A stretch of 63,740 nucleotides of DNA, from contig VGIR01000007.1 of NCBI GenBank assembly GCA_016867815.1, forward strand, positions 1-63,740. The letters run 5' to 3'. Position numbers and translations under genes: made by a program. This DNA is from a candidate division WOR-3 bacterium. Its GTDB lineage: Bacteria > Hydrothermota > Tepidihabitantia > Tepidihabitantales > Tepidihabitantaceae. Below the pieces are notes generated by a model. The model was not told where the DNA came from. It searched no databases and was given only the letters and a program-made list of their open reading frames with translations. Below, piece after piece: positions 24,999 through 40,673 of this stretch (positions are counted from its first letter, which is position 1; every line of letters starts with the position of its first letter).

Positions 24999-25128
24999 GT
25001 CCCTCAAGGTAAAATCCGAATGACGAATCCCGAATGACGACTGAAACCCGAATGGCGGAGAAGCCCGAATTGGTCATTCGAGCTTAGAGCTTGACTCGTC
25101 ATTCGCGCTTCGTGCTTCGAGCTTCATT
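24999..25128. repeat. Intergenic phrase repeat with inverted arms
   Basis: The left arm reiterates CGAATGACGAATC-like units (25016-25060); the right arm reiterates their complement, GTCATTCG and GCTTCGTGCTTCGAGCTTC (25072-25125). The element fills the complete gap between two genes and ends on the next start codon. No Shine-Dalgarno or consistent -10 is seen. Confidence 0.75.
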
Positions 25129-26160
25129 TTGAGAGTAATCTTCGGCTCCTTCTCGGCGATAACCGTCCTCGGCGGAGGCGTAGAGGTCCAGATGCGCGCC
25201 CTCGCGCGAGAACTGGGCAGGCTCGGTATCGAGGTCGAGCTGTTCGACCCGTGGAAGCGATACGGTCTTAAGGACTACTCGTACTTCCACCTGTTCGGCT
25301 CGCACGTCGGCACCTACCATCTGGGCCGGTCCATGCACGGCCTGGGCATCAGGCTCATCGTTACGCCGGTTTTCTACTCGCGCCACAACCCGGCCCGGGT
25401 GGCGACCGCGGTAGGCATTGCCGGCAAGGTCAGACAGCGAGGCGGGTTCTGGACCGAGCATATGTTCTGCAAGGAACTCTGTGACATGGCCGAGCTGGTC
25501 CTGCCCGACACCAGGGATGAGATGGAGATGCTGGCCCGCGGGTTCGGCGTGCCGGCAAGCAAGATGCACGAGTTGCCCAATGGCGTGGAGGAGAGGTTCG
25601 CCAATGCCACCCCTGACCTGTTCGTCAAGGAGCACGGCCTGAAGGACTTCGTCCTCTACGTCGGGCACATCGGCCCGGCCCGCAAGAACGTCTTCCCCAT
25701 GCTCAAGGCGGTGAAAGCCCTGGGCCTCCCAACCGTGCTCATCGGCCCGGTCTCTGAGACCGGCTATGCCAACCAGTGCATGAAGCTGGTTGCCGAGACG
25801 CCGAACATCAAGGTCATCCCCGGGCTGGCACCGGACTCGCCGGTGCTCGAGTCGGCCTACGCGGCCTGCGACACCTTTGTCCTGCCGTCCCTGTATGAAA
25901 CTCCCGGCCTGGCCGCGCTCGAGGCCGGTCTGGCCGGCGCCAAGGTCTGCATCACGCGCTACGGCGGCACCCGGGAGTACTTTGACGAGCACGCGACCTA
26001 CCTGGAGCCGGGCTCGGAAGAATCCATCGTCAACTCGATCAAGCAGGCGCGCGAGCGAAAGAAGGACTCCGCCCTGCGTGACCGCATCCGCGCGAACTAC
26101 CTCTGGCCCAAGGCGGGGGAGATACTCGCCTCAATCTACAAGACCGCAGCCCAGACATAA
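25129..26160 (+). CDS. GT4-type glycosyltransferase
   Basis: A 343-residue GT-B glycosyltransferase: N-terminal FGSFSAITVLGGGVEVQMRALARELGRLG, a middle NGVEERF segment, then the donor-binding domain with LYVGHIGPARKNVFPMLKA and LPSLYETPGLAALEAGLAGAKVCITRYGG (the ExxxxxxxE motif). It probably belongs to the upstream polysaccharide cluster. TTG at 25129 is the first usable start; it lacks a Shine-Dalgarno and directly follows the short-period repeat, so this gene may depend on readthrough from upstream or on a start I cannot see. Confidence 0.82.
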   Translation: MRVIFGSFSAITVLGGGVEVQMRALARELGRLGIEVELFDPWKRYGLKDYSYFHLFGSHVGTYHLGRSMHGLGIRLIVTPVFYSRHNPARVATAVGIAGKVRQRGGFWTEHMFCKELCDMAELVLPDTRDEMEMLARGFGVPASKMHELPNGVEERFANATPDLFVKEHGLKDFVLYVGHIGPARKNVFPMLKAVKALGLPTVLIGPVSETGYANQCMKLVAETPNIKVIPGLAPDSPVLESAYAACDTFVLPSLYETPGLAALEAGLAGAKVCITRYGGTREYFDEHATYLEPGSEESIVNSIKQARERKKDSALRDRIRANYLWPKAGEILASIYKTAAQT

Positions 26161-26263
26161 CCCGTCGGTTCCTCATACGGCCCTACAGAGGTTTTCCACA
26201 TGCAGTTTACATAATCCATATTATCGGAAGAAGGGGTGAATAGAATGTGGACGGATGCAGGCA

Positions 26264-26288
26264 AAGGAAACGCCGCCCGAAGGCGGCG
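26264..26288 (-). terminator. UUCG-type terminator
   Basis: On the minus strand: CGCCGCC, TTCG tetraloop, GGCGGCG, then TTTCCTTTGCC. It ends the transcript of the 26315-26677 gene. Confidence 0.85.
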
Positions 26289-26314
26289 CTTCTCCTCGAC
26301 GGCAGACGATAAGC

Positions 26315-26677
26315 CTAGAACTTAAACCACTTCTCGGCCAGGGGCGCAACACCCAGCGGGCACTTCCAGTACTTGCCGCCGAGCGAGTTGATGAGGCCCA
26401 TAATCGCGAGCACGAGCACGATGATCGAACCCACCGGCGCGACAATGAACCACCCGAGGAACGGAATCGCTCCGCCGACCACGCCCACGGCAACTCCGTA
26501 GATGGTGAGCACGATGCCCTGCTTCACATGGAACTTGGCAAACTCGTTCTCCTTCATCGTCAGCAGCGGTATCAGCCACAGGATACCGACGTAGGACAAC
26601 CAGGCAGTCCCCTTGGCCTTCTCAACCTCATCGCCACCAGCCGGCGGCGTGCTCACGGACTTCGGTGCTTCATCCAT
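26315..26677 (-). CDS. DUF4870/Tic20-like small membrane protein
   Basis: A 120-residue membrane protein. A polar N-terminus (about 1-22) is followed by three hydrophobic segments (about 26-41, 54-72 and 76-97), with FAKFHVKQGIVL between the first two, the signature of DUF4870 proteins. No activity is known. GAGGAGG lies 5 nt before the ATG. It follows a related gene by 33 nt and is probably cotranscribed. The two may be paralogues or subunits of one complex. Confidence 0.75.
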   Translation of the reverse strand: MDEAPKSVSTPPAGGDEVEKAKGTAWLSYVGILWLIPLLTMKENEFAKFHVKQGIVLTIYGVAVGVVGGAIPFLGWFIVAPVGSIIVLVLAIMGLINSLGGKYWKCPLGVAPLAEKWFKF

Positions 26678-26710
26678 TCATGCCTCCTCGCATTGGTTCT
26701 ATAAGGAACA

Positions 26711-27130
26711 TCACAACCTGAGCCGCTCGGCGAAAACGCCGACTACGGGTATGCGCCAGTACTGACCGGTCGCGGCTTGCGCGATACCGGCAATGACAAC
26801 CGCCACGTAGGCAAGAGCTACCACCAACCCGGCAGGATAGTGAATCAGCCAGGCCACGGCCCGGAAAAAGAGCCCGATCAAGAACATGCCACCCAGCATC
26901 CTGCCGAGAACCAGGTCGGTTATCCCGACACCGATGTTGAAGACCAGGACCGCGGCGAAGAGCACCAGGCTCTGGCGGCCATGGAACCGTGCGAACGGCT
27001 CCCTGGTCCCGACGAACAAAGGCAGAAAGAACAAGAGTGGCACGTACCCGAGCGCGGCCAGCAGGACCGCGTCGGAGCTCGCCCGTTCCTCAGCCGCAGG
27101 CCCGATTTCCTTCAAAGTAGCGTCTGCCAA
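26711..27130 (-). CDS. DUF4870-like membrane protein
   Basis: About 139 residues with a polar N-terminus and four hydrophobic segments, containing FARFHGRQSLVLFAAVLVFNI, which matches the FA+FH..Q motif of the downstream gene. The frame can be extended to TTG 27154, but a consensus promoter (TTGACT-16-TATAAT) has its -10 at 27137-27142, so transcription starts below that codon. TTG 27130, 6 nt past the -10, fits the leaderless pattern seen elsewhere in the window and is adopted here. Confidence in the gene is good; in the start, moderate. Confidence 0.65.
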   Translation of the reverse strand: MADATLKEIGPAAEERASSDAVLLAALGYVPLLFFLPLFVGTREPFARFHGRQSLVLFAAVLVFNIGVGITDLVLGRMLGGMFLIGLFFRAVAWLIHYPAGLVVALAYVAVVIAGIAQAATGQYWRIPVVGVFAERLRL

Positions 27131-27136
27131 CGCCCG

Positions 27137-27164
27137 ATTATAACGGTGCGACAACCTAAGTCAA
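27137..27164 (-). promoter_or_regulatory. Promoter of the DUF4870 pair
   Basis: On the minus strand: TTGACT (27164-27159), 16-bp spacer, TATAAT (27142-27137). It overlaps the first codons of the longest frame and so corrects the start of the gene. Confidence 0.75.
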
Positions 27165-27284
27165 GCAGTCGGGCAGCACTGGAGCCGAGATTGACGGCCG
27201 GCGGCGTGCCGCTCAGTGTCAGGTCAGAAGAAGCGAAAGGAGTCCGGCAGCCGGTGGCTGCAACCGGTCGCAGCGGCGAGTTGC

Positions 27285-27536
27285 TCAGCGGTCGCGCGGC
27301 TTGATCACCGCGAAGAGCAAGACCGAGAAGGCCATGGCCACCGCGCCCATGAACAGGCCGGCGACCATACCCAGCCCGGCGCCGCAGCGGACGAGCGAAG
27401 CGCTGCCCGGAGGCGCGGCACAGCTTCTGACCAGTTCGGGCGCTACCAGGGCTACCGCTGAACCGAACAGCCCGCCGACCACGGCGGCGAACAGCGAGGC
27501 ACCGACGATGGACAGGAAACAGCGCAGTACCGACAC
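27285..27536 (-). CDS. Small two-helix membrane protein
   Basis: An 83-residue protein with two hydrophobic segments (about 8-32 and 52-76) separated by a loop with two cysteines (RSCAAPPGSASLVRCGAGLG). The GTG start is preceded by AAGGAGG with 5-nt spacing. No family recognised. It lies between a membrane-protein operon and the insertion sequence. A real but uncharacterised gene is likely. Confidence 0.6.
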   Translation of the reverse strand: MSVLRCFLSIVGASLFAAVVGGLFGSAVALVAPELVRSCAAPPGSASLVRCGAGLGMVAGLFMGAVAMAFSVLLFAVIKPRDR

Positions 27537-27649
27537 GGATTCCTCCTTACAGGATAGCGACGAAACTGGCAGGTAAAGGTTCTTTCACTTTGATAGTTAT
27601 GCGAAAGGATACTATGTCAGACGGCTCGCCCGGCGTTCTGGTTTGCTGC

Positions 27650-27892
27650 CATGCTCCATGCTCCTGCCTCCTCATCGTCGTGCCTCTCCCCTCTCCTCCT
27701 TGACTCGTTTCTCTCCCTCTCCTCACCGAGGAGAGGCGTTTGGAGAAACGATAGCGGGCGGGGTCCGGCAGCAGAACCCCACCCGCTTTCAGACCGAACC
27801 ATCAGGTCACAGGTCAACGCCAGCGTTCGTGCAGTTCGTCCAACTTCCGGACTTCTGCCTTCTCCGCTCTGTCTTCTGACTTCTGACGTCGA
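27650..27892. repeat. Composite intergenic repeat next to the insertion sequence
   Basis: It contains CT-rich blocks, a perfect palindrome CCTCTCCTC / GAGGAGAGG (27716-27736) like that at 281-303, and, from about 27790, a stretch of about 105 nt closely similar to 62105-62208. The shared stretch ends in CTTCTGACTTCTGACGTCG. The insertion sequence begins immediately after it. Together with 27537-27649, where I see nothing, it accounts for the gap before the element. Confidence 0.65.
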
Positions 27893-29308
27893 GGTCCTGT
27901 CAAATGTTGTGGAAATAGCTGAGCGGTGTCTTGGGGTCATGCTGCTGCTTTCACTTGAAGGCCATTGCGGTACCTGGCACCGGCCACCACCGCCGCGACC
28001 AGTTCCGGCGCATTCAATCGGTGCCAGCGTGTCTGCTGGTCCTGCATCAGTTTGAACACGAGCCCCAAGGCCGACCAGTGCTGCATCATCCGCTTCGCCC
28101 GCTTCACCCGGCTCTTGACCGCTGAGAACGGCGACTCGACCGGATTCGTCGTCCTCAGGTGCCGCCAGTGCTCTTTGGGGAAGTCGAAGTATCCCAACAG
28201 GTCGTCCTGGTTCTCAACTAGACACCTCACTGCCGGCGGATAGGCCTTGTAGCTCTCGGCGAAGCGAGCTATGCGTGCCAGAGCCTCGGCTCTCGTCACC
28301 GCACCGTAGATGCGCTGGAGTGATTTGCGCGCCTGGCTCTGCTTCGACTTGGGCAGCTTGTCCAGGATGTTCCGCATCATGTGCACCCAGCAACGCTGCC
28401 GCCGCGTGGCCGGGAAAGCCTGGACCAGAGCACTCCAGAATCCGGCTATCCCATCCGCTACTGCCAGCCCGACCCAAGTCACACCCCGCTCTTTGAGGTC
28501 GTGTAGCACTTCCAACCATTGATCCTCACTCTCCCGCTGCCCGGCGATCAAAGTTAGAAGCTGCTTCCGACCGTCCACGTCTGCACCCATCACTACGAGC
28601 AGCGCCAGCTTCTCTTTGTTACGGCCCACCTTGATGTAGATGCCATCGGCCCAGATGTAGGCGTAGTGTGAGAAAAGCGGCCGTTTCCGCCAGGCCTCGT
28701 ATTCCTCGGCCCACTTCTCCTTCAGCCGCGAGATCGTTGCCGGACTCAATGCTGCGCCGACTCCCAACAGACACTCCAGCGCTGCCTCAAAGTCACCGGT
28801 CGAGATACCGTAGAGATAGAGCTGCGGTAATGTCTCCAGCACCTTCGGACTGGTCCGCTGATAGGGCGCCAAGAGGCCGGACCTGAAGTCACCGCCGTCC
28901 TCGCTCACCCGCGGTGCCTCGACTTCGACGCTGCCGCCGCTCAGGTGTACCTGCCGTGGCTTCGCGTACCCGTTTCGATACCCCCGCAGCTTGGCTCTAC
29001 CGGCACGCACATATGGCTCGCGCGCAAGAAACTCATCCCGCTCCGCCTCCAGTGTATCTTGGATCTTCTCCCGGGCTCCGGTGAGCGCAACCTTGTCCAA
29101 GAGACAGGCTGCCTCCTGCTTCATCACGCGCCGCATCCGGCGCTCCGATCGCCTCTCACGTCGCTCCTGCCTTCTTCTTACGGCTTCCTGCTCTTTCTGA
29201 TAGTCTGACATCGTAGCGGTGTCTCCTCTCTCGGGCTAAAACCCGTCATAACAATCACATGGAATCGTAGACACCGCTCTCTCTTTTTCCACAACTTCTG
29301 ATGATACC
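27893..29308 (-). mobile_element. IS256-family insertion sequence, complete
   Basis: An element of about 1.4 kb with imperfect terminal inverted repeats: 27893-27931 and 29269-29308 share GTTGTGGAAA and GAGCGGTGTCT in the same order. A single transposase gene fills it. No clear 8-9 bp target duplication was found at these boundaries, so either the ends are slightly off or the element has lost its duplication. It lies directly against a dispersed repeat. Confidence 0.75.
27937..29211 (-). CDS. IS256-family transposase
   Basis: A 424-residue Mutator-type DDE transposase. It has IWADGIYIKVGRNKEKLALLVVMGADVDG around the first catalytic Asp region, GLAVADGIAGFWSAL with the second Asp, RCWVHMMRNILDKLPK (the C/D-x2-H helix), and NPVESPFSAVKSRVKRAKRM with the catalytic Glu. 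The frame is intact, so it may be active. The ATG follows GAGAGGAG by about 11 nt. It cuts and pastes or copies the flanking inverted repeats. Compare the different, partial relative at the right edge. Confidence 0.92.
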   Translation of the reverse strand: MSDYQKEQEAVRRRQERRERRSERRMRRVMKQEAACLLDKVALTGAREKIQDTLEAERDEFLAREPYVRAGRAKLRGYRNGYAKPRQVHLSGGSVEVEAPRVSEDGGDFRSGLLAPYQRTSPKVLETLPQLYLYGISTGDFEAALECLLGVGAALSPATISRLKEKWAEEYEAWRKRPLFSHYAYIWADGIYIKVGRNKEKLALLVVMGADVDGRKQLLTLIAGQRESEDQWLEVLHDLKERGVTWVGLAVADGIAGFWSALVQAFPATRRQRCWVHMMRNILDKLPKSKQSQARKSLQRIYGAVTRAEALARIARFAESYKAYPPAVRCLVENQDDLLGYFDFPKEHWRHLRTTNPVESPFSAVKSRVKRAKRMMQHWSALGLVFKLMQDQQTRWHRLNAPELVAAVVAGARYRNGLQVKAAA

Positions 29309-29361
29309 TCCTGCCGAACCGGACAACGGCTGCGGCCCTCGGCCAAGCCACCCAAGAGCAA

Positions 29362-29385
29362 GCTGCCCGCGAGAACGCGGGCAGC
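29362..29385 (-). terminator. Terminator of beta-propeller gene
   Basis: GCTGCCCGCG (29362-29371), AGAA loop, CGCGGGCAGC (29376-29385): a perfect 10-bp stem 26 nt past the stop codon. On the minus strand TTGCTCTTGG follows, a weak T-tract. Confidence 0.6.
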
Positions 29386-29411
29386 GATGTTACGGCGGGT
29401 TCGAGGAAGGG

Positions 29412-31814
29412 CTACTTGGTCAAAACAACCTTCCGCACGTCGCCCGGTCTCCCGTCTTCGGTCATCGGTCCACGGACGAAGTACACACCCGGAGCGAGTG
29501 CCCGCACGTCATTCTCTCCCGGCTTGAGGTTCCGGACCTCTCGTCCCGTGGCGTCCAACAACACGCTTGACGCCCTACGCTCAACGCCCGACGCCAGAGG
29601 CAGATGCAGGTTGCCGCGCAGAACCGTCGGGCCGGGACTCGTCGTTCGCACGTCGGCGTTCGGCATTTCCTCGACCCCCGGCGGCGCGTCCGGGTAAACC
29701 AGGATCACGTCGCCGCATCCTACGTAGATGCACCGCTGCTCCGGGTTCGATGCAATACACCCGGGGTAGGGATAGGGCAGGTGTGAATAGACGCCAACCA
29801 GACTGTCCGCCCGCGTGTCGTAGACTCTGAGAGCGCTATCATATGGAGAAGAACAGAACATGTACCTGCCGGTGTGGTCAAGGCATGTGCCATGGAGCGA
29901 TACACTGGTCGCCATCCGGGCCGTGACCGTGTCGCTGGTGGCGTCAATCGCGAGAACGCTGTCATCACCCACGAACCAGTAGAGCTTCTTGGTCGTGTCC
30001 GCATATGCCAGGAAAGTGCTCTTGTATCTACCGTCGTAGTACGGCCAGTAGATTGTCGTCAGCAAGGAAAACGAATGGGAATCCCAGGCCTCTAGTCGGT
30101 CCGGGTCCCTGCGAGTAACGTACATCTTCCCACCGTCTCCAGTGTGGGCGGTCGCGCCCACGCCGCCAATCGGCGCATAGAGCGGGATGCTGTCCGTCCG
30201 GCTGTCGATGACGGCAAGGCTCTCCCCCAAGTAACAGAGCATGCGACCATCGCCCAGGTATTCGAGCCGCATGACGATATCGCTGGCTGCTATGTTCCGT
30301 ACCACGGAGTCGGTGTTGCAGTCGACCACGGCGATCTGGACAGTTGAGTCATCCACGAAGCTGTAGACCTTGTTCCCGTCCGGGCACCAGCTGGGGCTGA
30401 GGTCCGGATCCCTCTTGGTGTCGATGACCTTGAGCAGGCTGTCTGTCGCCCCGTCCAGCACGCCAATGCCTTTCCGGGCGGCGAAGTAGAACTTGTTGCT
30501 GTGTCGGCTATACGTCATTTCATGGCCGTAGTAGGCTTCACCCAAGAACGACTGTTTGACCACGCTGTTGACTCGTTCGTCTACGACACCTACCCCACCG
30601 ATGGTTACGCCCCAACGGCAGTACAGCCTGCTGGTCGCAGGGTTGTGGTACATTACACGCCTCCAGCCGCAGAGCGGGACGGCCGTGACCACCGACGTGG
30701 TGTCGTACCTGCAGTCAACCGGCAGCAGCACGGCCTCCTCCGAATCTCCATAGACGTACAGCATCCTGCGTCGGTCCGGGTCCGACTCGATAATCCTGCC
30801 CCACCCCGCGCATCCAACTTTGGAAACGACATCGAAGGTCTCGCAGTCGAACTCGATGAGACTGCCCCAGTTTGTGAGGCTGTACAGCCGGTCACGCACA
30901 GTGTCACAGGCAATTGCCAAGCTGTAAGCATCATCCCAAATGTAGCAGGCGCGCGTGAACGTGTCGCCCGAGCAGTCGAACTCGAGTATGCGGTCCGGGT
31001 CCGAACTCCTCATTGCGTACAGGCGGTCGGTGGCCTCGTTGCACGCCAGGCGACCCCGCCGAAAAGCCACGCCATGCATCGCGGCTATCACGGAGTCGGA
31101 TTGGGTGGAGATAACGTATATGGTGTCGAGGCCCTGGTACTCCGGACCCACCGCGTACAGCTTCTGGCGGCGCTTGTTGACACACAGGCTGACCGGCCTC
31201 TTTGCCGCAGTGATGGCTGCGACCACGGAATCGGCGGAGCAGGATATCGCGAGCACACCATCGCGCGTCGCGGCGTACACCTTATTCGAAGTCGGGTCGT
31301 AGGCCATGGCAGCAAGGCTTCTTCCGACCGGGACAACTTTCAGAAGCGCGTTGCTGGCACAGCCTATGACCGAGACGGTCTTGTCGATGGTGTCGCCGCA
31401 ATACAGCTTGTCGCTGCCTGAGCTGTAGCAGAGAAGCGTCGGTCGGGACCCGACGAGAATCGAGCCGACCACCTCGTTGGTCGAGCAGTCGATGACCCCG
31501 ACTCGGCCCTGCGACGGATGAGAAACGTACAGCCGGTTGTGCTTGCTGACCAGCAGCGCGCCGCCGACGGGCGTGCCGGTGTTGATGCGCTTGATGCGCT
31601 GGAAGGTGTTCCCATCCACGACAATGATGTCTGACGACTCACTTGCCACGTAGATGTTGTCGGTCGAGCTGCCGAACGCCAGATGATAGCCCGGCCGCAG
31701 CGGCCCCAGCGAGTCCGGCAGCAGGATTGTATCCGGAACCGTCGGCGTCCACGCCAGACTCACCCCGACGCCCAGCGCCAGCGCACAGAGGAGGACCAGG
31801 CTTGGCTTCTTCAT
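29412..31814 (-). CDS. Secreted YVTN-type beta-propeller protein with C-terminal sorting-like domain
   Basis: About 800 residues. Signal peptide MKKPSLVLLCALALGVGVSLA, then a dozen or more beta-propeller blade repeats (NxIYVASESSDIIVVDGNTFQ, NRLYVSHPSQGRVGVIDCSTNEVV, DKLYCGDTIDKTVSVIGC and so on) similar to surface YVTN repeats. The last 70 residues read LLDATGREVRNLKPGENDVRALAPGVYFVRG, a FlgD/T9SS-type C-terminal domain. It is probably exported to the cell surface. ATG 31814 begins the signal peptide; the frame extends 8 codons to a TTG, but that codon precedes the expected transcription start. Ligand unknown. Confidence 0.82.
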   Translation of the reverse strand: MKKPSLVLLCALALGVGVSLAWTPTVPDTILLPDSLGPLRPGYHLAFGSSTDNIYVASESSDIIVVDGNTFQRIKRINTGTPVGGALLVSKHNRLYVSHPSQGRVGVIDCSTNEVVGSILVGSRPTLLCYSSGSDKLYCGDTIDKTVSVIGCASNALLKVVPVGRSLAAMAYDPTSNKVYAATRDGVLAISCSADSVVAAITAAKRPVSLCVNKRRQKLYAVGPEYQGLDTIYVISTQSDSVIAAMHGVAFRRGRLACNEATDRLYAMRSSDPDRILEFDCSGDTFTRACYIWDDAYSLAIACDTVRDRLYSLTNWGSLIEFDCETFDVVSKVGCAGWGRIIESDPDRRRMLYVYGDSEEAVLLPVDCRYDTTSVVTAVPLCGWRRVMYHNPATSRLYCRWGVTIGGVGVVDERVNSVVKQSFLGEAYYGHEMTYSRHSNKFYFAARKGIGVLDGATDSLLKVIDTKRDPDLSPSWCPDGNKVYSFVDDSTVQIAVVDCNTDSVVRNIAASDIVMRLEYLGDGRMLCYLGESLAVIDSRTDSIPLYAPIGGVGATAHTGDGGKMYVTRRDPDRLEAWDSHSFSLLTTIYWPYYDGRYKSTFLAYADTTKKLYWFVGDDSVLAIDATSDTVTARMATSVSLHGTCLDHTGRYMFCSSPYDSALRVYDTRADSLVGVYSHLPYPYPGCIASNPEQRCIYVGCGDVILVYPDAPPGVEEMPNADVRTTSPGPTVLRGNLHLPLASGVERRASSVLLDATGREVRNLKPGENDVRALAPGVYFVRGPMTEDGRPGDVRKVVLTK

Positions 31815-31840
31815 TTTGGCACCACGCCCTAGCTGCAAGG

Positions 31841-31869
31841 AGTCTAGACCTGCCGTGGCGCTCTGTCAA
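31841..31869 (-). promoter_or_regulatory. Promoter of the beta-propeller gene
   Basis: On the minus strand: TTGACA (31869-31864), 17-bp spacer, TAGACT (31846-31841). A leader of about 20 nt precedes the ATG at 31814; no strong Shine-Dalgarno is seen. Confidence 0.6.
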
Positions 31870-32265
31870 TGGTCAATCGCGTTCGTTCTTCCCCATGCTC
31901 TTCGCCCCGCTCCGAGGTTGGCAGCAGAATCAACCATAGCCTCCACCCTCTCCCCCGCTCTTGGGCAAGTGGCGGGAACGCAGCTTCCTCCGCCCCGCCC
32001 GCCGCTCGCCCTCTCCCCTGCCATCAGGTCAAGCCGAGAGCCGCGCGCCGTAGGCCAGCGTTCGCGCTACGGCCTGGGTCTGACTGTGAGTGTTATCGGG
32101 TTGGAAGAGGCGTTGCCGTGCCGGAGGCCAAAGGATAGTCCGGAGTTCAGAGTCCAGAACCCGGAGACTGGAATTGCGGCCCGAACCCGGCCCGGCGAAT
32201 CCCTGCGCGCCAGAACGCTCTCCATCACTGGACCACCGGACCCAAGGAGCACTTGAGCGCTCTGC
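31870..32265. repeat. Intergenic region with fragments of the dispersed repeats
   Basis: No gene is seen. Pieces match repeats elsewhere: GGCAGCAGAA, CCATCAGGTC and GCCAGCGTTCG (31910-32065) occur in the same order at 27771-27828, and 32139-32175 has short-period GGAGTTCAGAGTCCAGAACC-like text. Neither looks coding on codon grounds. Confidence 0.5.
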
Positions 32266-32658
32266 TCAATCTACGTCCATGGACTCGATGACCAGTTCTT
32301 GTCCGGAAATGATGTCGCCACCGGCGTTGCAGGCGCACATGCCTTGAAGGATGTGGTCTAGTGGTCCAGTGGCCGATTGGTCGACTGAGTCAGCTCGGCC
32401 TGGAGCAGACGAAGTACCCCATTCGGCGCTGCATTTGGGGCAACGGATGCGCAAGGGGACTCGCTTGAACTCAAGCTCGGCCTCGGCCGCGGCCGTGCCT
32501 TTCTTCATCTCGTCGAAGTAGAGCTGGACGCAGTCAGGCACGACGCTGCCGCCCGTACCGAGCAGCAGCCGGATGCGGCCTATGCGCTTGGCGCCGTGCT
32601 TCTCAGCTTCAGCCAGTGCCTGGTCGAGCAGCGCACGGGTGATGGAAAGCTCGTGCAT
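32266..32658 (-). CDS. hypA: HypA-like nickel/zinc metallochaperone with inserted loop
   Basis: A 130-residue HypA, the accessory protein that supplies nickel to [NiFe]-hydrogenase or urease. MHELSITRALLDQA carries the conserved N-terminal Met-His-Glu nickel site; EFKRVPLRIRCPKC leads to the first zinc pair, Cys73 and Cys76. Normally about 13 residues separate this pair from a second CxxC. Here about 31 residues intervene and the second pair reads C108-A-C110. The extra loop (about residues 82-106) is encoded by repeat DNA matching intergenic elements. Zinc binding may be altered. No Shine-Dalgarno is visible before the ATG, which follows another repeat. Confidence 0.8.
   Translation of the reverse strand: MHELSITRALLDQALAEAEKHGAKRIGRIRLLLGTGGSVVPDCVQLYFDEMKKGTAAAEAELEFKRVPLRIRCPKCSAEWGTSSAPGRADSVDQSATGPLDHILQGMCACNAGGDIISGQELVIESMDVD
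32343..32415. repeat. Phrase repeat inside the hypA zinc loop
   Basis: Contains GTGGTCTAGTGGTCCAGTGG (32354-32373), the same phrase found in gaps at 32659-32755 and 40586-40673. It is in frame on the minus strand and encodes the SVDQSATGPLDHILQG loop. Confidence 0.75.
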
Positions 32659-32755
32659 AACAGGGAGAGTGCTCCAGTGATCAAGTGGTCAAGAGATCCA
32701 GTGGAGAAACGGACCGGGGCACTAGACCACTGGAACACTGGGCCACTTGGCCACT
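32659..32755. repeat. Phrase repeat with inverted arms filling a gap
   Basis: Left arm GTGCTCCAGTGATCAAGTGG and on (32668-32704); right arm CACTAGACCACTGGAACACT and GGGCCACTTGGCCACTA (32719-32755). The arms are complementary in kind. The element spans the gap from the stop of the DUF2723 gene (which shares its last bases) to the hypA ATG. Confidence 0.8.
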
Positions 32756-35582
32756 ACGATATCTCTCTCAGCAGATTGGCCGCGGTCGTGTCCGACGGGA
32801 CGCGCTGGAGCCACTGCTGCATCAGAATCCGCGCCCTGCCCGTATCGTGCAGGTCGTCCAGGTACAACCGGTAGAGCGCCTGGATCGGATCCGGCCGGGT
32901 GGGATCTTCGAGGACGGCCGCTCGATAGGCCGACTCGGCCCTGGCAAACTCGCCCTTGCCCTGGTAGGCGTAGCCGCGGCGCAAAGACAGGTCCGGGTCC
33001 TGGTAGCCGCGGGCCTGGATGGAATCGAGGAAACCGATTGCTTTGTCGTATTGGCCGTTGAGCATCGCGAACATGGACGCGTGGTAGAACAGCGGGACCT
33101 TCTTGTCCTGGTCGAGGCCGAAGCGCAGAGCCTTCTCGATAACGTCAAGCGCCTCGACGTTCTGGCCCGCCTTCTGGAACTCGCCGGCGAGCGCCAGGTA
33201 GCTCGCGGCGTAGTTGATGAGGAGTCCGCGCGTGTTCTCGTCCTTCTCAACGTTGGGGTCGAGCATGGCATCCATCTTGTACACGTCGTACATCATGTGG
33301 CGTGTCTTCGCGACGTCAACCATGTTCGGACCCTCTTCCTTGACCACCCGATTGACCAGACCCTCGAGACGGAGATGCGGATCCACCTCCTCGAGGTTGT
33401 CGCTGGAGACGGTCGTGGCATAGTAGACCGGCGAACGGGGATTGTAGTCAGCAGTGAAGACCTTGGCCCGGTACTCCTCCGGCGTGCAAGCGTAGTCATC
33501 CGGCCACCTCAACTTCACGCCCGCGCTCGTGGCGACGATGTCGCGCATCATGATGTCCTTGAGCAGATACGTACGATTGTCCTTGCCGACGAAGCCCTGC
33601 GGCAGCCTGTCGATCTGCGCCTCGGAGAACGAGATGGGCGCCCCCCAGCGCTTGAGCTGCTTGCAGTACCAGGTCGTGTTGAGCAGCGAGAGGTTGGCGA
33701 CCGCCACGTTCTTGCCGAACTTCGGATCGTAGTTCGAGACCCGCGACAGCACGGTCTGCATGAACCAGAGCGGGAACGTATCGTTGTCACCGTTCGTGAA
33801 GAGGACCGCGTGCTCGCCCGGGCAGGATATCAGCATGTTGTACCCGTACTCCGCCGGTATCCAGTCGCCGCGGCGGGTCACCGACTTGTAGTTCAGGAGC
33901 ATCGGGACGAAGGCGAATGCCAGCAACGCTCCGGACATAGAGTAGACGGGGAGCTTCCGCGCCCTCACCCTGTCGGCAAACCAGCGCAGGAACGCGTAGG
34001 CCCCGACGCCGATGAAGATGGTGTAGAACACGAACGAAAAGGCGTAGAAGTAGTCACGCTCGCGCACCTCGCGGAACCGGAGCTGAGACCGCGGATCTGA
34101 GGTCGAGTACTTCAGGTTCAGGTAGGTGATGAGACCGGCCGATGCGACCAGGAATGCCACCAGAATAAGCACGAATGACCGCTTCTCTTTCTTGAGCTGG
34201 TGCCACATACCCCAGACCCCGAGCAACGGCGGGATCAGCCCGAGCAGGGCCTGCCAGCTGACGTGCAGGAAGATATCGAAGAACCGCGGGTTGCCCCACT
34301 GCCAGAAGAAGTAGCGTATGTAGAACTTCACCTGCTCAAAGTAGGCGACGAACAGGTTGAATTGCGGGTTCTGGTTCATCCGCCAGTCATCTTCGGTCAG
34401 GAACTGGGTCTTGCGCGGTAAGAGCTTCATCGGGTCATACTGCTCGCGCTTGAGCACGCCGACGAAGTCACGCCAGTTCGACGGGTTCACTTCATTGATG
34501 CTGGGTTCGCGTCCGGCGCGTATGAGCATGATGAACTGGACGCAGCCGGCAAGAAACACCAGCCCGAGCATCAGGCCGACGTATCTGAGGCTCAGCTTGC
34601 CCTGGCGGTGCAGCCAGTAAAGGTATCCGCTGTACCCGGCCGCGAGCAGCAGGAGTAGTACCGGCGTCTGCACCCACCGCTCGATGAAGGCCACGGTCGG
34701 TGAAGCAAGGAACAGGACCGTGTCGTCCATCACCCGGTTTCCCGCCGCCACGTAGGCAATCACAAAGACCAGGAAGAATAGGCCGAGTCCGTAGAACACC
34801 GACCTGGTATGGGTCGAACGTTCCATCACCCTGATGCCGTACCAGGTTGCGCCCAGCATCAGCGGGATCGCGACAAACGTGCCCGCGGAGAAGCCCAGCT
34901 CACCCATCGTCAGGATGATCAGGTATCCGGCGACCAGCTCGAAGAGCCTCAACTGCAGCACGGATTCGCGATCCACCACCATCGCGAAGACCAGCACCGC
35001 GAACAAGGTCATCATCGGCGTGAAGTGGATGCCGGTCGAAAGGAAGAGCAGGAACAGTGCGGCCAGTATCAGGCGGTTGTCGCCGTCGGAACGCTGGATG
35101 TGGTCGCGCCAGACCAAGGCCATGTAGAGAACGGACAAAGCGACTACCACGCACGGCCCGTACACCTCGGCCTCGACCGAGTTATCCCAGAAGGAGAACG
35201 CGAAGGCGCAGGCCAGGGCGCCAAAGACGCCGGCGACGTGCGGCAGCCACTTGTCGTGACGCCGTTCCGGGCTCGTGTACGGCGCAATGAGTCTGAGGAC
35301 GAGCAGGTAGATGAGCCCGCAGGAGAAGGCGCCGAACAACACCGGAATGAGGTTGATTCTGAAGGCGTGCTCCGGGCTGGTCGGGAGCATCGAGAAGATG
35401 CGACCGATGGTCACGAAGAGCGGCGTGCCCGGCGGGTGTGGGACTCCGTATATGCAGGCAGTCGCGATCAATTCGCCGCAGTCCCAGAATGCCGCGGTCG
35501 GCGCGACAGTCGAGAGGTAGGCAACCAGCACCACGGCAAACACAGCGGCGAAGAGAATGATGCGTATTCTTCGGTCGTTCAT
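32754..35582 (-). CDS. DUF2723 membrane protein with TPR tail (copy A)
   Basis: A 942-residue protein. The N-terminal DUF2723 domain has AAFWDCGELIATACIYGVPHPPGTP (about residues 30-55), the region thought to hold the acidic catalytic site of GT-C-type transferases, followed by about 12-14 helices to about 560. A soluble middle domain with TNGDNDTFPLWFMQ is next. From about 790 the C-terminus contains TPR-like repeats (YDKAIGFLDSIQARGYQDPDLSLRRGYAYQGKGEFARAESAYRAAV). DUF2723 proteins are related to TMEM260-type O-mannosyltransferases, so a surface-glycosylation role is possible. ATG with GGAGG 8 nt upstream. A paralogue lies just upstream (35745-38591). Confidence 0.8.
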   Translation of the reverse strand: MNDRRIRIILFAAVFAVVLVAYLSTVAPTAAFWDCGELIATACIYGVPHPPGTPLFVTIGRIFSMLPTSPEHAFRINLIPVLFGAFSCGLIYLLVLRLIAPYTSPERRHDKWLPHVAGVFGALACAFAFSFWDNSVEAEVYGPCVVVALSVLYMALVWRDHIQRSDGDNRLILAALFLLFLSTGIHFTPMMTLFAVLVFAMVVDRESVLQLRLFELVAGYLIILTMGELGFSAGTFVAIPLMLGATWYGIRVMERSTHTRSVFYGLGLFFLVFVIAYVAAGNRVMDDTVLFLASPTVAFIERWVQTPVLLLLLAAGYSGYLYWLHRQGKLSLRYVGLMLGLVFLAGCVQFIMLIRAGREPSINEVNPSNWRDFVGVLKREQYDPMKLLPRKTQFLTEDDWRMNQNPQFNLFVAYFEQVKFYIRYFFWQWGNPRFFDIFLHVSWQALLGLIPPLLGVWGMWHQLKKEKRSFVLILVAFLVASAGLITYLNLKYSTSDPRSQLRFREVRERDYFYAFSFVFYTIFIGVGAYAFLRWFADRVRARKLPVYSMSGALLAFAFVPMLLNYKSVTRRGDWIPAEYGYNMLISCPGEHAVLFTNGDNDTFPLWFMQTVLSRVSNYDPKFGKNVAVANLSLLNTTWYCKQLKRWGAPISFSEAQIDRLPQGFVGKDNRTYLLKDIMMRDIVATSAGVKLRWPDDYACTPEEYRAKVFTADYNPRSPVYYATTVSSDNLEEVDPHLRLEGLVNRVVKEEGPNMVDVAKTRHMMYDVYKMDAMLDPNVEKDENTRGLLINYAASYLALAGEFQKAGQNVEALDVIEKALRFGLDQDKKVPLFYHASMFAMLNGQYDKAIGFLDSIQARGYQDPDLSLRRGYAYQGKGEFARAESAYRAAVLEDPTRPDPIQALYRLYLDDLHDTGRARILMQQWLQRVPSDTTAANLLREIS

Positions 35583-35605
35583 CAGGCGGGCCTCCGGGAA
35601 AAGAA

Positions 35606-35645
35606 AGGAGTCAAGGATTCAAGGAGTCAGGTGCCAGGCACACGG
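35606..35645. repeat. GGAGTCAAGGATTCAA-type short repeat
   Basis: AGGAGTCAAGGATTCAAGGA (35606-35625) and onward has an approximately 8-nt period and is followed by a GTGCC/GGCAC palindrome (about 35631-35642). It occupies much of the gap upstream of DUF2723 copy A. Confidence 0.55.
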
Positions 35646-35744
35646 CCCGGCAGCACGGTTCTGTGGCTCACTCACGCAGGCTGATACTATAGAGAGAACC
35701 AAATGGAGTCAAATCAGACGTCCGCAGGCAGCCGCGAACCCCGG

Positions 35745-38591
35745 CTAGGAAAGCTGTTGCAGCTGGCGGGCGGCGGCCGAGTCGGACGGGGCGCGACGCA
35801 ACCAGAGCTGAAGAAGTGCCTTGCCTTTGGCCGTATCGCCAAGCTTGCCCAGGTAGAGATGGACCAGTGCCTGCACGACTTCGCCCCGGCCTGGGTCAGC
35901 GCTCATTGCCTCGATGTAGGCCGACTCAGCCTGCTTGAGGTTCTCCTTGCCCTCGTGGGCCAGGCCGCGTCGCAATGCGAAGTCGGGCTGCGTGAACCCG
36001 AGCGCCTGGATAGTATCGAGCGCGGCCAGGGCCCTGTCATAGTTCCCGTTCTCCAGCGCGACACTCGAAAGATGATAGAGGACCGTCATCCGGCGGTCCC
36101 GGTCAAGATCCAGCCCGGTAGCCAGGGTCAGGACGTGCTCGGCGTCGAGCGGACGATTCAGGCGCCGGTAGCCATTGGCCATCGACATGAAAGTCGCGGC
36201 ATAGGTCAGAAGCAGTCCCCTGGTATTCTCATCTTTGCTGACGCGAGGGTCAAGTATCGACTTCATGCTGTACACGGAGTCAACCAGGTAGCGGCTCCGG
36301 TCCAGGTCCACTTGCTCGCTCCCCGCGTCGGGTACGACGCGATAGACCAGGCCTTCCAACCGGAGGTGCGACTTCACATCCTGCAGGCTGCCGGGCGAAA
36401 CCGTGGTCGCGATATAGACCGGCGTCCGGGGTTTGTAGCCCGGGCCGAACACCTTCGCAATGTACTCCTCGGAGGTCGCAGCGTAGTCTTCCGGCCAGTT
36501 GAGTTTGACTCCACCGGCGGTCGCCACCATATCGCGGATCATTACGTCCTCAAGCAGGAACGTCCGGTTGTTCTTGCCGACGAAGCCGCGCGGAAGCTGC
36601 TCTATCTCCTCCTCGGTGAAGGAGATCGGCGCGCCCCACCGCTTCAGTTGCTTGATGTACCAGTTCGTGTTCAGAAGCGAGAGGATCCCGACCCGGACGT
36701 TCTTGCCGAAATCGTGGCTATAGCCGGCAATACGCGAGGGCACCGTCTGCATGAACCAGAGCGGGAAAGTGTCGTTGTCGCCATTGGTGAAGAGGACTGC
36801 GCGCTCGCCCGGGCAAGATGCGAGCATATTGTACCCGTACTCGGCCGGTATCCAGTCGCCCCGGCGGCTGACTTCCGGATAGTTCAGCAGCATCGGTACG
36901 AACCCGAATGCAAGGAGCGCGCCGGACAGCGCGTAGGCCGGTGCGCGTCTGAATCGGAGTCGATCGATGACCGTCCGAAGAAATGCGTATGCCCCGACAC
37001 CGACGAAGATCGTATAGAAGACAAAGGAGAAGGCGTAGAAATAGTCGCGCTCGCGCACCTCCAGGTATCCGTACCCGCCCTGGGCCGGGTTGCCGCGCCT
37101 TGGATCCGAGGGCGAGTACTTCAGATTCAGGTAGGTGACCAGGCCGATCGAAGCCACCAGGAAGGCAACGAAGATGAGGACGAAGGATCGCTTCTCGCGT
37201 CGGAACTGATGCCACATGCCCCACAGCCCAAGCAAAGGCGGTATCAAGCCGAGCAGGGCCTGCCAGCCAACGTGCAGGAAGATGTCGAAGAAGCGCGCGT
37301 TGCCCCACTGCCAGAAGAAATAGCGGAGGTAGAACTTGACCTGCTCGAAGTACGCAACCAGCACGCCGAAGCGCGGGTTCCGATTCATCCGCCAGTCATC
37401 TTCGGTCAGGAACTGCGTCTTGCGCGGCAGGAGCTTCATTGGATCGTACTGCTCGCGCTTGAGCACGCTGACGAAATCGCGCCAGTTTGACGGGTCCGCC
37501 TCGTTGATCGTGGGCGAGTGACTCGCGCGGATGAACATGATGAACTGCACCGTACCGGCGAGAAGTACCAGTCCGAGCATCAACCCCACGTACTTTGGGC
37601 TCAGCCGCCGCTGGCGGTGGAGCCAGTAGAGGTACCCACCGTAGCTCGCTACCAGCAGCAGCAGCAGCATTGGCGAGCGCACCCACCGTTCGATCAAAGC
37701 CACGGTCGGCGACGCAAGGAACAGCACCGTATCGTCCATTATCGCGTTCCCTGCCGCCACGTAGGCGATGACGAACACGAGGAAGAACAGGCCCAGGCCG
37801 TAGAACACCGACCGCGTATGGGTGGAGCGATCCATCACCCTGATACCGTACCAGGCCGCGCCCAGCATCAGCGGTATGGCGACGAAGGCAGCGACGGAGA
37901 GCCCCAGTTCGGCCATCGTCAGTATCACCAGGTAGGCGGCGAACAGCTCGAAGAGCCTGAGCTGCAGTACCGCTTCCCGGTCGACGATGAGTGCAAACAC
38001 CAGCACTGCGAATACGGTCATCATCGGGGTGAAGTGGATACCGGTGGAAAGAAAGAGGAGGAAAATCGCGGCCAGAATCAGGCGATTGTCGCCGCCCGCC
38101 CGCTTGAGTTGTTCGCGCCAGACCAGCGCCATGTAGAGCACCGACAAAGCGACGACCACGCACGGGCCGTAGACCTCGGCCTCGACCGAGTTGTCCCAGA
38201 ACGAGAACGCGAAGGCGCAGGCAAGGCCGCCGAACACGCCGGCGACGTGCGGCAGCCACCTGTCGTGCCGGCGTTCGGGAACGACGTAGGACGAAATGAG
38301 TTTGAGGACAAGCAGGTAGATGAGCCCGCAGGAGAAGGCACCGAAGAGCACCGGGATCAGGGTGACTCGGAAAGCCACCTCTTTCGCCACGGGCAGCATG
38401 GAGAAGATGCGCCCCAGGGTTACGAACAACGGCGTGCCGGGCGGGTGCGGGACGCCCATCGTGAACGCCGCCGAAATCAACTCGCCGCAGTCCCAGAACG
38501 CCGCGGTTGGGGCGGCGCTGTACAGGTACACACCGGCCACGACGACGAACACCGCCGCGAACACCAGCAGCCGGACTCTAGTATCGTTCAT
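35745..38591 (-). CDS. DUF2723 membrane protein with TPR tail (copy B)
   Basis: A 948-residue paralogue of copy A, very similar throughout: AAFWDCGELISAAFTMGVPHPPGTP near residue 30, the membrane region to about 560, TNGDNDTFPLWFMQ, and a C-terminal TPR-like segment (AESAYIEAMSADPGRGEVVQALVHLYLGKL). The two differ most in the TPR tail and in an insert RRGNPAQGGYGYLEVRERDYF. They probably arose by tandem duplication. GGAGG is 8 nt before the ATG, which lies 3 nt after the cdaA stop, so copy B belongs to the folP-cdaA transcript. Confidence 0.8.
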   Translation of the reverse strand: MNDTRVRLLVFAAVFVVVAGVYLYSAAPTAAFWDCGELISAAFTMGVPHPPGTPLFVTLGRIFSMLPVAKEVAFRVTLIPVLFGAFSCGLIYLLVLKLISSYVVPERRHDRWLPHVAGVFGGLACAFAFSFWDNSVEAEVYGPCVVVALSVLYMALVWREQLKRAGGDNRLILAAIFLLFLSTGIHFTPMMTVFAVLVFALIVDREAVLQLRLFELFAAYLVILTMAELGLSVAAFVAIPLMLGAAWYGIRVMDRSTHTRSVFYGLGLFFLVFVIAYVAAGNAIMDDTVLFLASPTVALIERWVRSPMLLLLLVASYGGYLYWLHRQRRLSPKYVGLMLGLVLLAGTVQFIMFIRASHSPTINEADPSNWRDFVSVLKREQYDPMKLLPRKTQFLTEDDWRMNRNPRFGVLVAYFEQVKFYLRYFFWQWGNARFFDIFLHVGWQALLGLIPPLLGLWGMWHQFRREKRSFVLIFVAFLVASIGLVTYLNLKYSPSDPRRGNPAQGGYGYLEVRERDYFYAFSFVFYTIFVGVGAYAFLRTVIDRLRFRRAPAYALSGALLAFGFVPMLLNYPEVSRRGDWIPAEYGYNMLASCPGERAVLFTNGDNDTFPLWFMQTVPSRIAGYSHDFGKNVRVGILSLLNTNWYIKQLKRWGAPISFTEEEIEQLPRGFVGKNNRTFLLEDVMIRDMVATAGGVKLNWPEDYAATSEEYIAKVFGPGYKPRTPVYIATTVSPGSLQDVKSHLRLEGLVYRVVPDAGSEQVDLDRSRYLVDSVYSMKSILDPRVSKDENTRGLLLTYAATFMSMANGYRRLNRPLDAEHVLTLATGLDLDRDRRMTVLYHLSSVALENGNYDRALAALDTIQALGFTQPDFALRRGLAHEGKENLKQAESAYIEAMSADPGRGEVVQALVHLYLGKLGDTAKGKALLQLWLRRAPSDSAAARQLQQLS

Positions 38592-38594
38592 GAA

Positions 38595-39353
38595 TCAGAC
38601 CTCCGTGGCCAGGGCTTGCTGGATGTTGTACTTGAGCTGGGACGGCGTGAGCCCGGACAGCAGCGCACCGCGGTTGGCAAAGCTGATCTTGCCCGTGGTT
38701 TCCGAGACAATCACGGCGATGGCATCGGTCACGGTCGCGATGCCGAGTCCGGCCCGGTGGCGCATCCCCAACGCATTCTCGACGTACCGCTCTTCACTCA
38801 AGGGCAGCGTACAGCCGGCGGCCACAACTTGCCCGGCGATGATGATGGCACCGCCGTCGTGCAAAGGCGCAGGGGGAGTGAAGATCGAAACCAACAGCGG
38901 CGCCGAAACCCGCGCTTCCACCCTGGTCCCGGTCTCAACATAGTCGCGGAGCCCGATATCGCGTTCGATGACCAGCAGCGCACCGATCCTGTGGTCTTTC
39001 ATCTGCGCCGCCGCCTCGACGATCTCTTCGACGGCGGCAGCATCCGCCCCGTGCTTCAGGAGGAACCGCAGCGGCCGGTAGCGGCCGAACCGGGACAGGA
39101 TGTTCCGAATCTCGGGCTGGAAGATGATGACGAAGGCGACAATCCAGACGGTAGTCAGCGAGTTGACGATGAGACCGACTGCTTTGAGGTCGAGCCAGCG
39201 TGCAACGAACGACACCGCTACCAGGAAGAAAAGTCCGTAGAGCATGCGGATGGCGCGCGTGCCCTTCAGGAAACGGAGGAAATAGTAGGCCAGCAGGGCC
39301 ACCATCAGGATGTCGAAGGCGTCTACCCAGCGGAAACTGACGAACGACAGCAC
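38595..39353 (-). CDS. cdaA: Diadenylate cyclase CdaA
   Basis: A 252-residue membrane diadenylate cyclase that makes c-di-AMP from two ATP. Three N-terminal helices (about 10-75) are followed by the DAC domain with LHDGGAIIIAG (the DGA motif) and GMRHRAGLGIATVTDA (the RHR motif). Size matches CdaA. In many bacteria cdaA lies next to cdaR/glmM or folP; here it directly follows folP (GTG immediately after the TAG) and is followed by a DUF2723 gene. Its product signals envelope and osmotic state. Confidence 0.92.
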   Translation of the reverse strand: MLSFVSFRWVDAFDILMVALLAYYFLRFLKGTRAIRMLYGLFFLVAVSFVARWLDLKAVGLIVNSLTTVWIVAFVIIFQPEIRNILSRFGRYRPLRFLLKHGADAAAVEEIVEAAAQMKDHRIGALLVIERDIGLRDYVETGTRVEARVSAPLLVSIFTPPAPLHDGGAIIIAGQVVAAGCTLPLSEERYVENALGMRHRAGLGIATVTDAIAVIVSETTGKISFANRGALLSGLTPSQLKYNIQQALATEV

Positions 39354-40547
39354 CTAGGCTCTCATCTCCACGGCATCGGCCAGCTTCAAAGCCTTCACAA
39401 CCGGTTTGACGTCATGAACACGCAGAACGTTCGCCCCGTTCCTCGCCGCCAGCACACACGCAGCGATTGTTCCCTCGACTCGCTCTCCCGGCGGCGAGTC
39501 CGAAACCGCACCGATGAAGCGCTTGCGAGACGGGCCAACTACGACCGGTGCACCCAGGGACTCAAGCTCAGCCAGCCGGCGCAGGATTTCGAGATTGTGC
39601 GCCACGGTCTTGCCGAAGCCGATGCCCGGGTCAACGAGCATCTGCGTGCGCGCGATGCCGGCGGCCTCTCCCCGCCTCAACGCCTCAGCCAGGAAGTCGG
39701 TTACTTCGGCCATCAGGTCGGAGTATTCGGGCTTCTTCTGCATGGTGCGGGGCCGGCCTTTCATGTGCATCAGTATACATGGGACTCCGGCTCGCGCCAC
39801 AATCACTGCCATTTGCCTGTCTCCGGCAAAGGCAGACACGTCGTTCACGATATCCGCGCCCTCGCTGAGCGCGATGCTCGTGACCGTCGCGCTGGTTGTA
39901 TCAACTGACACCGGTGTCTTCAGCCTCTTCTTCACCGCCCGCAGCACCGGGAGAAGCCGCGCCTGTTGCTCCCTCACCGGAACCGGTCGGGAACCGGGCC
40001 TGGTCGACTCCGCTCCAATGTCTATGAAATCAGCACCTTCCTCCGCCATCGACAACGCATGCTCGACTGCAGCCGACGGCTCAAGGAACCTTCCGCCGTC
40101 GGAGAAGGAATCGGGAGTGACGTTGAGTATGCCCATCACGTACGTTCGTCTGCCCAGATCCAGGGTTTTCCGCCCCAGCTTGATGGACCGCGTCCGTGAC
40201 TGCAGGTTTCCAACCAACTCGCTGAGTTCCGGGACAAGTCGGGCCACACATTCCGGCTGGTCTGCCAGTCGGTACCCGAGCGTCTGCAGTTGTCGTTTGG
40301 TCAGGAAGAGAATCGCATCCGTGCGCCTGACTCGACCCGAGACGACCAACCGGTTCACCGCACAGTCCCCTCCGCAGGCCATCGCGGTCTGCTTCAGGAT
40401 GTTCGCTGTCGCCGTTGATAGGCAGTCAACCTTGATGGCGACCACCCGGCTCTTGGCCCGGAAAATCGGCCAGCTCAGCGGGTCGGCTCCAACCCGGGTG
40501 AGCTCAACATCGAGGTCGGCCTGGTTCGCTACGGAGAGCAGACGCAT
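39354..40547 (-). CDS. folP: Dihydropteroate synthase
   Basis: FolP joins p-aminobenzoate and dihydropterin pyrophosphate in folate synthesis. The catalytic domain (about residues 130-397) has YVMGILNVTPDSFSDGG, ADFIDIGAESTRPGS, ILMHMKGRPRTMQ and VVGPSRKRFIG, all characteristic. The protein is 397 residues against about 280 for E. coli FolP; the first about 130 residues are an additional N-terminal domain of the type seen in some long DHPS proteins. The promoter -10 (TATAAG) lies 5 nt before the ATG, so it is predicted to be leaderless. It is first gene of a folP-cdaA-DUF2723 operon. Confidence 0.92.
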   Translation of the reverse strand: MRLLSVANQADLDVELTRVGADPLSWPIFRAKSRVVAIKVDCLSTATANILKQTAMACGGDCAVNRLVVSGRVRRTDAILFLTKRQLQTLGYRLADQPECVARLVPELSELVGNLQSRTRSIKLGRKTLDLGRRTYVMGILNVTPDSFSDGGRFLEPSAAVEHALSMAEEGADFIDIGAESTRPGSRPVPVREQQARLLPVLRAVKKRLKTPVSVDTTSATVTSIALSEGADIVNDVSAFAGDRQMAVIVARAGVPCILMHMKGRPRTMQKKPEYSDLMAEVTDFLAEALRRGEAAGIARTQMLVDPGIGFGKTVAHNLEILRRLAELESLGAPVVVGPSRKRFIGAVSDSPPGERVEGTIAACVLAARNGANVLRVHDVKPVVKALKLADAVEMRA

Positions 40548-40552
40548 GTGAA

Positions 40553-40581: not shown

Positions 40582-40585
40582 GCAA

Positions 40586-40673
40586 TAGTGGACAAGTGGT
40601 CTAGTGGTCCAGTGCTCCAGTGTGGAACCTGCAACACTTGATCACTAGGCCACTAGATCACTCGACCACCTTC
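40586..40673. repeat. Phrase repeat with inverted arms
   Basis: Left arm GTGGTCTAGTGGTCCAGTGC (40596-40615); right arm CACTTGATCACTAGGCCACT and AGATCACTCGACCACC (40635-40670), complementary in type. It fills the space between the folP promoter and the rocD stop codon, and shares its phrase with hypA and 32659-32755. Confidence 0.8.

What the first reader, a model, noticed from the sequence alone, without database searches (positions are those of the whole stretch)
32343..32415. Intergenic repeat phrase inserted in the zinc loop of HypA
The extra loop of HypA is encoded by GTGGTCTAGTGGTCCAGTGG, the phrase that fills the neighbouring gap (32659-32755) and 40586-40673. The distance from the first to the second Cys pair grows from about 13 to about 31 residues, and the second pair reads CxC (C108, C110) in place of CxxC. 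The repeat has invaded a gene in frame at a metal site.
Basis: partly seen in the sequence, partly recalled or inferred. Interest (0 to 1): 0.78.

Follow-up and report, generated by a model that had tools for sequence, protein, structure and literature searches.

The report
Short repeats inserted inside bacterial genes
A piece of an eight-letter DNA repeat that normally sits between genes is spliced in frame into a loop of the nickel-chaperone gene hypA, and it turns out to be one of dozens of such insertions, including in core housekeeping genes, across one genus of uncultured bacteria (candidate division WOR-3).

Summary
hypA (32266-32658, minus strand) carries four octamer units (AGTGGTCN, 32352-32383, 25 of 28 positions matched) of the family that forms hairpin arrays at 32668-32755 and 40587-40670. 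The family is real: 35 arrays in 1.2 Mb of the same genome, none in the reversed control.

The repeat is an in-frame insertion: the nearest insert-free relative has 10 residues between the Cys pairs, here 31. But the CxC second pair is not caused by it; relatives of the same order with short loops also have CxC.

The wider finding matters more. In this genus (candidate division WOR-3), 7- and 8-base tandem arrays lie inside called genes about 80 times in 1.2 Mb (shuffled control: none), including uvrA, uvrC, mfd, metG, lipA, nadB and urocanase. A related genus has none in 400 kb. At one site of urocanase and one of UvrA, sister species carry different repeat families; relatives outside the genus lack the urocanase insert.

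Best reading: a spreading repeat tolerated in permissive protein loops, like Rickettsia palindromic elements and intragenic REPs, but with different units and turnover at fixed sites. Nothing shows that HypA function changed; its core is under purifying selection.

The parts
32266..32658 (-). hypA, 130 aa nickel metallochaperone; ORF intact
   Evidence: Pfam HypA E 4e-22, 78.7 bits against cut-off 28.9; core dN/dS about 0.13-0.15 against congeners; hypB present elsewhere in the genome
32352..32383 (+). four octamer units AGTGGTCN inside hypA, read on the minus strand as ...ATGPLDHI
   Evidence: 25 of 28 informative positions; exact phrase at 32353-32372
32347..32415 (-). extra loop of HypA, residues about 82-104, net +21 residues against insert-free relative G002
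   Evidence: codon alignment with G002, G003, G004
32431..32442 (-). first Cys pair, C73-P-K-C76
32329..32337 (-). second Cys pair, C108-A-C110 (CxC, shared by relatives of the order without insert)
32668..32755 (.). intergenic octamer hairpin upstream of hypA; overlaps the TAG stop of the upstream gene by two bases
   Evidence: both arms detected; RNA fold z = -4.1
40587..40670 (.). second intergenic octamer hairpin of the same family
   Evidence: both arms detected; RNA fold z = -4.9
32226..32257 (-). degenerate octamers just downstream of the hypA stop codon
   Evidence: read directly from the sequence; octamer DNA at the same place in G003 and G004

Best explanation
The hypA insert is a fragment of a genus-specific family of short tandem-repeat arrays (octamer AGTGGTCN, in its fuller form an intergenic hairpin). 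It was copied into the gene in frame and kept because the loop between the two zinc-binding Cys pairs tolerates extra residues. Arrays of this and several other 7- and 8-base families spread through the genome, fill gaps between genes and enter coding sequences. Purifying selection leaves only those that are a multiple of three, free of stops in that frame and in permissive loops or linkers. Once a site is occupied, the array there can be lost, or replaced by another repeat family, so sister species show different units at the same codon position. Shown: presence, in-frame state, absence in outgroups, different units at the same sites, and purifying selection on the HypA core. Inferred: the copying mechanism (array-to-array conversion or template switching, or mobilisation in trans) and the neutrality of the encoded peptide.
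For: Octamer arrays: 35 in 1.2 Mb, 0 in the reversed control; 29 between genes or at gene edges, 6 in genes (with hypA added by hand). The pattern is strongly enriched only in the genus: 68-153 hits in G000-G005, near control level elsewhere. Tandem arrays of period 7/8: 247 in the sample, 77-83 inside called genes by the stricter and looser rule, against 2-4 in total and 0 in genes after shuffling. Density in genes is 68 per Mb in G000 and 98 in congener G003, against 20 in G007 and 0 in G006. Hosts include metG, mfd, nadB, uvrC, lipA, thrC, hydE, hutU, chrA and uvrA, each with a match above the curated cut-off of at least one model of its family. Urocanase: outside the genus no insert (EIRTPGKIGSWKYPGF and similar); inside, the same site carries AGTGGTCN (G000), AGGGATCN (G003), AGGGGTCN (G002) or a CCAATCG heptamer (G004, G005). 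UvrA: the octamer is at one site in G002, G003 and G004, but a heptamer (AAGTCCC) is there in G000; family relatives have shorter loops. In the FtsX-like permease only G000 carries the insert. HypA core dN/dS 0.13-0.15 for G000. Inserts are read in either orientation (PLDHSTT or SGQVVK type peptides), which points to a DNA-level process rather than a selected peptide.
Against: No mobilising enzyme is identified: six Y1/RAYT-like transposase genes exist but none has octamers in its fetched flanks, and no reverse transcriptase was found. No target-site duplication was demonstrated. G000 and G003 share the hypA octamer junction although G003 and G001 branch first and G002 lacks the insert, so loss, recombination or repeated insertion must be assumed. 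Gene calls are home-made; some hosts are hypothetical proteins, and a few arrays counted inside genes look like ordinary coding sequence (for example C16:21672, PPGVGKTSLGRSIARALG).
Confidence: 0.8

Rival explanations
1. The insert is a functional innovation: the repeat-encoded loop changes metal affinity or partner choice of HypA and is kept by selection.
For: It sits between the metal-binding Cys pairs, and three of four congeners read have enlarged loops there. An archaeal HypA of solved structure has a loop of similar length.
Against: Loop length and sequence differ widely among congeners (10, 25, 31 and about 61 residues) and are built from different repeats. The same DNA is found in unrelated enzymes in both orientations. 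Relatives of the order without any insert have the same Cys pattern.
Confidence: 0.08
2. The arrays grew locally by slippage from low-complexity coding sequence; no copying between places took place.
For: Tandem 7- and 8-base units are what slippage amplifies; the metG and chrA linkers are low in complexity.
Against: The same octamer occurs at 35 places in 1.2 Mb with none in the reversed control and is enriched in one genus only. Intergenic copies are inverted-repeat hairpins with both arms, which slippage alone does not make. Unrelated units replace each other at one site. Slippage may still adjust copy number after arrival.
Confidence: 0.1
3. The insert is an assembly or binning artefact.
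For: All genus members in this comparison appear to be metagenome assemblies in many contigs, and short repeats can misassemble.
Against: G003 carries octamer DNA at the same hypA junction, and independent genomes carry frame-preserving inserts at the same sites of urocanase and UvrA. The reading frame is kept in each of these cases except one stop reported in the G004 urocanase hit, and the arrays are shorter than a sequencing read.
Confidence: 0.02

Closest known systems
Rickettsia palindromic elements (RPE)
   Same: Repeat DNA found both between genes and in frame inside unrelated protein genes that stay open (reviewed in PMC10969869).
   Different: RPEs are palindromes of about 150 bp or shorter REP-like units; here the unit is 7 or 8 bp in tandem, in-gene copies show one arm only, and different families replace each other at one site.
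Intragenic REPs, GTAG and CGTC families (PMC3733652)
   Same: Short repeats inside genes, DNA repair genes among them (uvrA there; uvrA, uvrC and mfd here); REPs often supply the TAG stop codon of flanking genes, as the array at 32668-32755 overlaps one here. That paper also notes different REPs at about the same site in recB of two Xanthomonas species.
   Different: Octamer arrays rather than a single 20-40 bp stem-loop, consensus without the GTAG or CGTC tag, no RAYT neighbour found.
Short tandem heptamer repeats of Cyanobacteria (STRR) and Beggiatoaceae (TAACTGA, PMC4679880)
   Same: Many tandem heptamer arrays of a few families dispersed through a genome.
   Different: Those reports concern mainly intergenic arrays; here a large share lies inside genes, and the octamer family forms inverted-repeat hairpins.

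Membership tests
HypA nickel metallochaperone | Profile match over curated cut-off | tested here: met
   Pfam PF01155 78.7 bits against 28.9. NCBIfam TIGR00100 is below its equivalog cut-off (57.9 against 88.1), but so are insert-free relatives (64.6 and 75.6), so this is a lineage effect.
HypA nickel metallochaperone | N-terminal MHE nickel motif and two Cys pairs (CxxC, CxxC) | tested here: inconclusive
   MHE and the first CxxC are present; the second pair is CxC here and in relatives of the order without insert.
HypA nickel metallochaperone | Partner HypB in the genome | tested here: met
   TIGR00073 match over the cut-off at C27:30711.
Rickettsia palindromic elements | Same repeat family between genes and in frame within protein genes | tested here: met
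Rickettsia palindromic elements | Insert is itself a palindrome of RPE type | tested here: not met
   In-gene octamer copies show one arm only, 0 of 6 with an opposite arm against 10 of 29 outside genes; six cases are too few for a firm contrast. The unit is an 8-mer.
REP / RAYT system | GTAG or CGTC tag and association with a RAYT gene | tested here: not met
   Consensus AGTGGTCN; no octamer near any of the six Y1_Tnp genes.
STRR-type tandem heptamers | Tandem 7-mers dispersed in the genome | tested here: met
   147 heptamer and 100 octamer arrays in 1.2 Mb
STRR-type tandem heptamers | Mainly intergenic location | tested here: inconclusive
   About two thirds outside called genes and one third inside

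The most novel reading that the evidence does not exclude
Fixed permissive sites in core genes act as docking sites at which one tandem-repeat family is exchanged for another between sister species, by an active copying process between arrays that works inside coding sequence and preserves the frame through selection. Protein loops in this genus would then be continually rewritten by intergenic DNA.
Probability: 0.4. Interest if true: 0.75.

Novelty: new variant of a known kind. Interest (0 to 1): 0.58.

Why it matters
Selfish or spreading DNA that enters protein genes in frame is best documented in Rickettsia and in some REP-bearing bacteria. Here is an uncultured genus in which short tandem repeats have entered many core genes, with orthologues from sister species at different stages: empty, occupied, re-occupied by another family. 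That gives a natural series for asking how intergenic DNA becomes protein sequence, how such short arrays are copied without an obvious transposase, and why DNA repair genes recur among the hosts. A practical consequence is that loops and linkers in predicted proteins of this lineage can be repeat-derived and should not be over-interpreted.

Tried and rejected
AlphaFold of HypA with only two sequences gave mean pLDDT 52, below 50 throughout the loop, and was not used or searched further. Y1/RAYT transposases and reverse transcriptases as movers of the octamer: no octamer near the six Y1 genes, no RVT_1 match. The idea that the repeat created the CxC pair was rejected on the short-loop relatives. 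Literature searches for tandem repeats in WOR-3 found nothing in the open library, which is not proof of absence.

Full report
What is there. The minus-strand ORF 32266-32658 encodes a 130-residue HypA (Pfam 78.7 bits against a cut-off of 28.9). Its Cys residues C73, C76 and C108, C110 are separated by 31 residues. Inside that loop, 32352-32383 reads as four octamers TGTGGTCT AGTGGTCC AGTGGCCG ATTGGTCG, 25 of 28 informative positions of the consensus AGTGGTCN. The same phrase forms inverted-repeat arrays at 32668-32755 and 40587-40670, which fold as strong hairpins (z = -4.1 and -4.9; the in-gene copy z = -2.1). The remaining inserted bases, 32384-32415, are not recognisably octamer.

Is it more than chance? 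Yes. Seven matches in the window against 0 expected; 132 genome-wide hits of a 13-base version against 14 for the reversed pattern; 35 arrays of at least three units in 1.2 Mb against 0 in the reversed sequence. Among relatives the pattern is strongly enriched only in the genus (68-153 hits in G000-G005), with weak traces in two other genomes of the family, G014 and G007. The organism is a candidate division WOR-3 bacterium, judged from the congener behind L061.

Is it an insertion? Homologues from the other genera of the family, and the congener G002, have 10 residues between the Cys pairs. G003 has about 61 residues, with octamer DNA at the same junction before ...GMC plus a palindromic GGGACTGTCCC-type repeat; G004 has 25 residues made of that second repeat. 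That second repeat is itself over-represented in the G000 sample (16 sites, 1 in the reversed control). Outside the loop the gene is under purifying selection (dN/dS about 0.13-0.15 for G000 against its congeners), and hypB is present in the genome. HypA is therefore probably a working protein with a repeat-derived loop.

What is wrong in the first interpretation. The CxC second pair is not produced by the repeat: relatives of the same order without any insert have CxC as well, in the frame C-x-C-N-A-G or close to it. The low score against TIGR00100 is also shared by insert-free relatives. A loop of about this size between the Cys pairs is seen in HypA structure 3a43.

The wider pattern. In the 1.2 Mb sample, Tandem Repeats Finder gives 147 arrays of period 7 and 100 of period 8; 77 (83 by a looser rule) lie inside called genes, against 0 after shuffling codons within genes and resampling the gaps. 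Congener G003 is alike (98 per Mb in genes), G007 has 20 per Mb, G006 none in 400 kb. Hosts recognised by NCBIfam include methionyl-tRNA synthetase, Mfd, L-aspartate oxidase, UvrC, lipoyl synthase, threonine synthase, HydE, urocanase, a chromate transporter and UvrA. The gene caller is home-made and missed hypA itself, so these numbers are approximate in both directions.

Turnover at fixed sites. Urocanases outside the genus share an uninterrupted stretch EIRTPGKIGSWKYPGF (with small variations). All five genus members that span the site carry an insert there, but with different units: AGTGGTCN in G000, AGGGATCN in G003, AGGGGTCN in G002 and a CCAATCG heptamer in G004 and G005. In UvrA, G002, G003 and G004 carry the octamer just before the stretch DLVFSAALACPEC (DMVFSAALACPEC in G003); G000 carries AAGTCCC heptamers there; relatives outside the genus have shorter loops. 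In methionyl-tRNA synthetase, G000 and G001 carry a heptamer array and G003 other inserted sequence at a place where G002, G004, G005 and the outgroup G010 have none. In the FtsX-like permease only G000 is interrupted. The genus tree places G001 and G003 apart from G000, G002, G004 and G005, with G000 and G002 poorly resolved; the hypA pattern therefore needs loss, recombination or repeated insertion.

How it probably works. Shown: the repeats are copied to many places, inserts are in frame, host genes stay open, and different families occupy one site in different species. Inferred: arrays are copied into new places, or converted one into another, by recombination or template switching between arrays, or moved in trans; selection keeps only inserts that are in frame, free of stops and in tolerant loops. 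Peptides are read from either strand of the octamer, which speaks against selection for a particular peptide. In-gene octamer copies show only one arm (0 of 6, against 10 of 29 elsewhere), suggestive of selection against hairpins in coding sequence but too few to prove it. No mobilising enzyme is linked to the octamer.

Comparison with what is known. In-frame repeats in protein genes are known from Rickettsia (RPE; PMC10969869) and from GTAG and CGTC REPs in several species, DNA repair genes among them (PMC3733652; uvrA is named there). Dispersed heptamer arrays are known from Beggiatoaceae and Cyanobacteria (PMC4679880). The present case joins the two: short tandem 7- and 8-mers that enter core genes in frame, with exchange of families at the same site. 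It works like RPEs and intragenic REPs but is not a member of either, since the defining palindromic unit or tag and the transposase association were tested and not met. I rate it a new variant of a known kind.

Noticed in passing
L018 (G007) HypA: A different insert of about 12 residues (ASGHKGRKQSAGPGRC region) lies between the first helix and second strand of HypA in G007, which has the short zinc loop.
   Followed up: no
L003 and L002 hypA loops; 16 sites in the 1.2 Mb G000 sample: A second palindromic repeat, GGGAC[AT]GTCCC, over-represented (16 against 1 in the reversed control), also enters genes (3 cases), and makes part of the HypA loop in two congeners.
   Followed up: partly
G000 contig C6, about 25061-40996: Several secreted-protein genes carry CAATCTG-type heptamer arrays at the same place of their C-terminal domain (LNLQSATCNLQ and similar peptides).
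   Followed up: no
window 62843-63101: A 24/48-bp tandem array (GGCTCATCCCC...GAGCTCA) near the end of the window, ten copies.
   Followed up: no
G000 uvrA (C16:17484), uvrC (C19:32404), mfd (C10:1839): Three nucleotide-excision-repair genes are among the hosts of in-gene arrays, echoing the bias to repair genes reported for intragenic REPs in PMC3733652; no enrichment test was made.
   Followed up: no
window 32668-32755 and the gene ending at 32754: The intergenic array starts on the TAG stop codon of the upstream gene, as reported for GTAG REPs; the same junction is seen in G003 and G004, while G002 keeps the TAG but has other repeats in the gap.
   Followed up: partly
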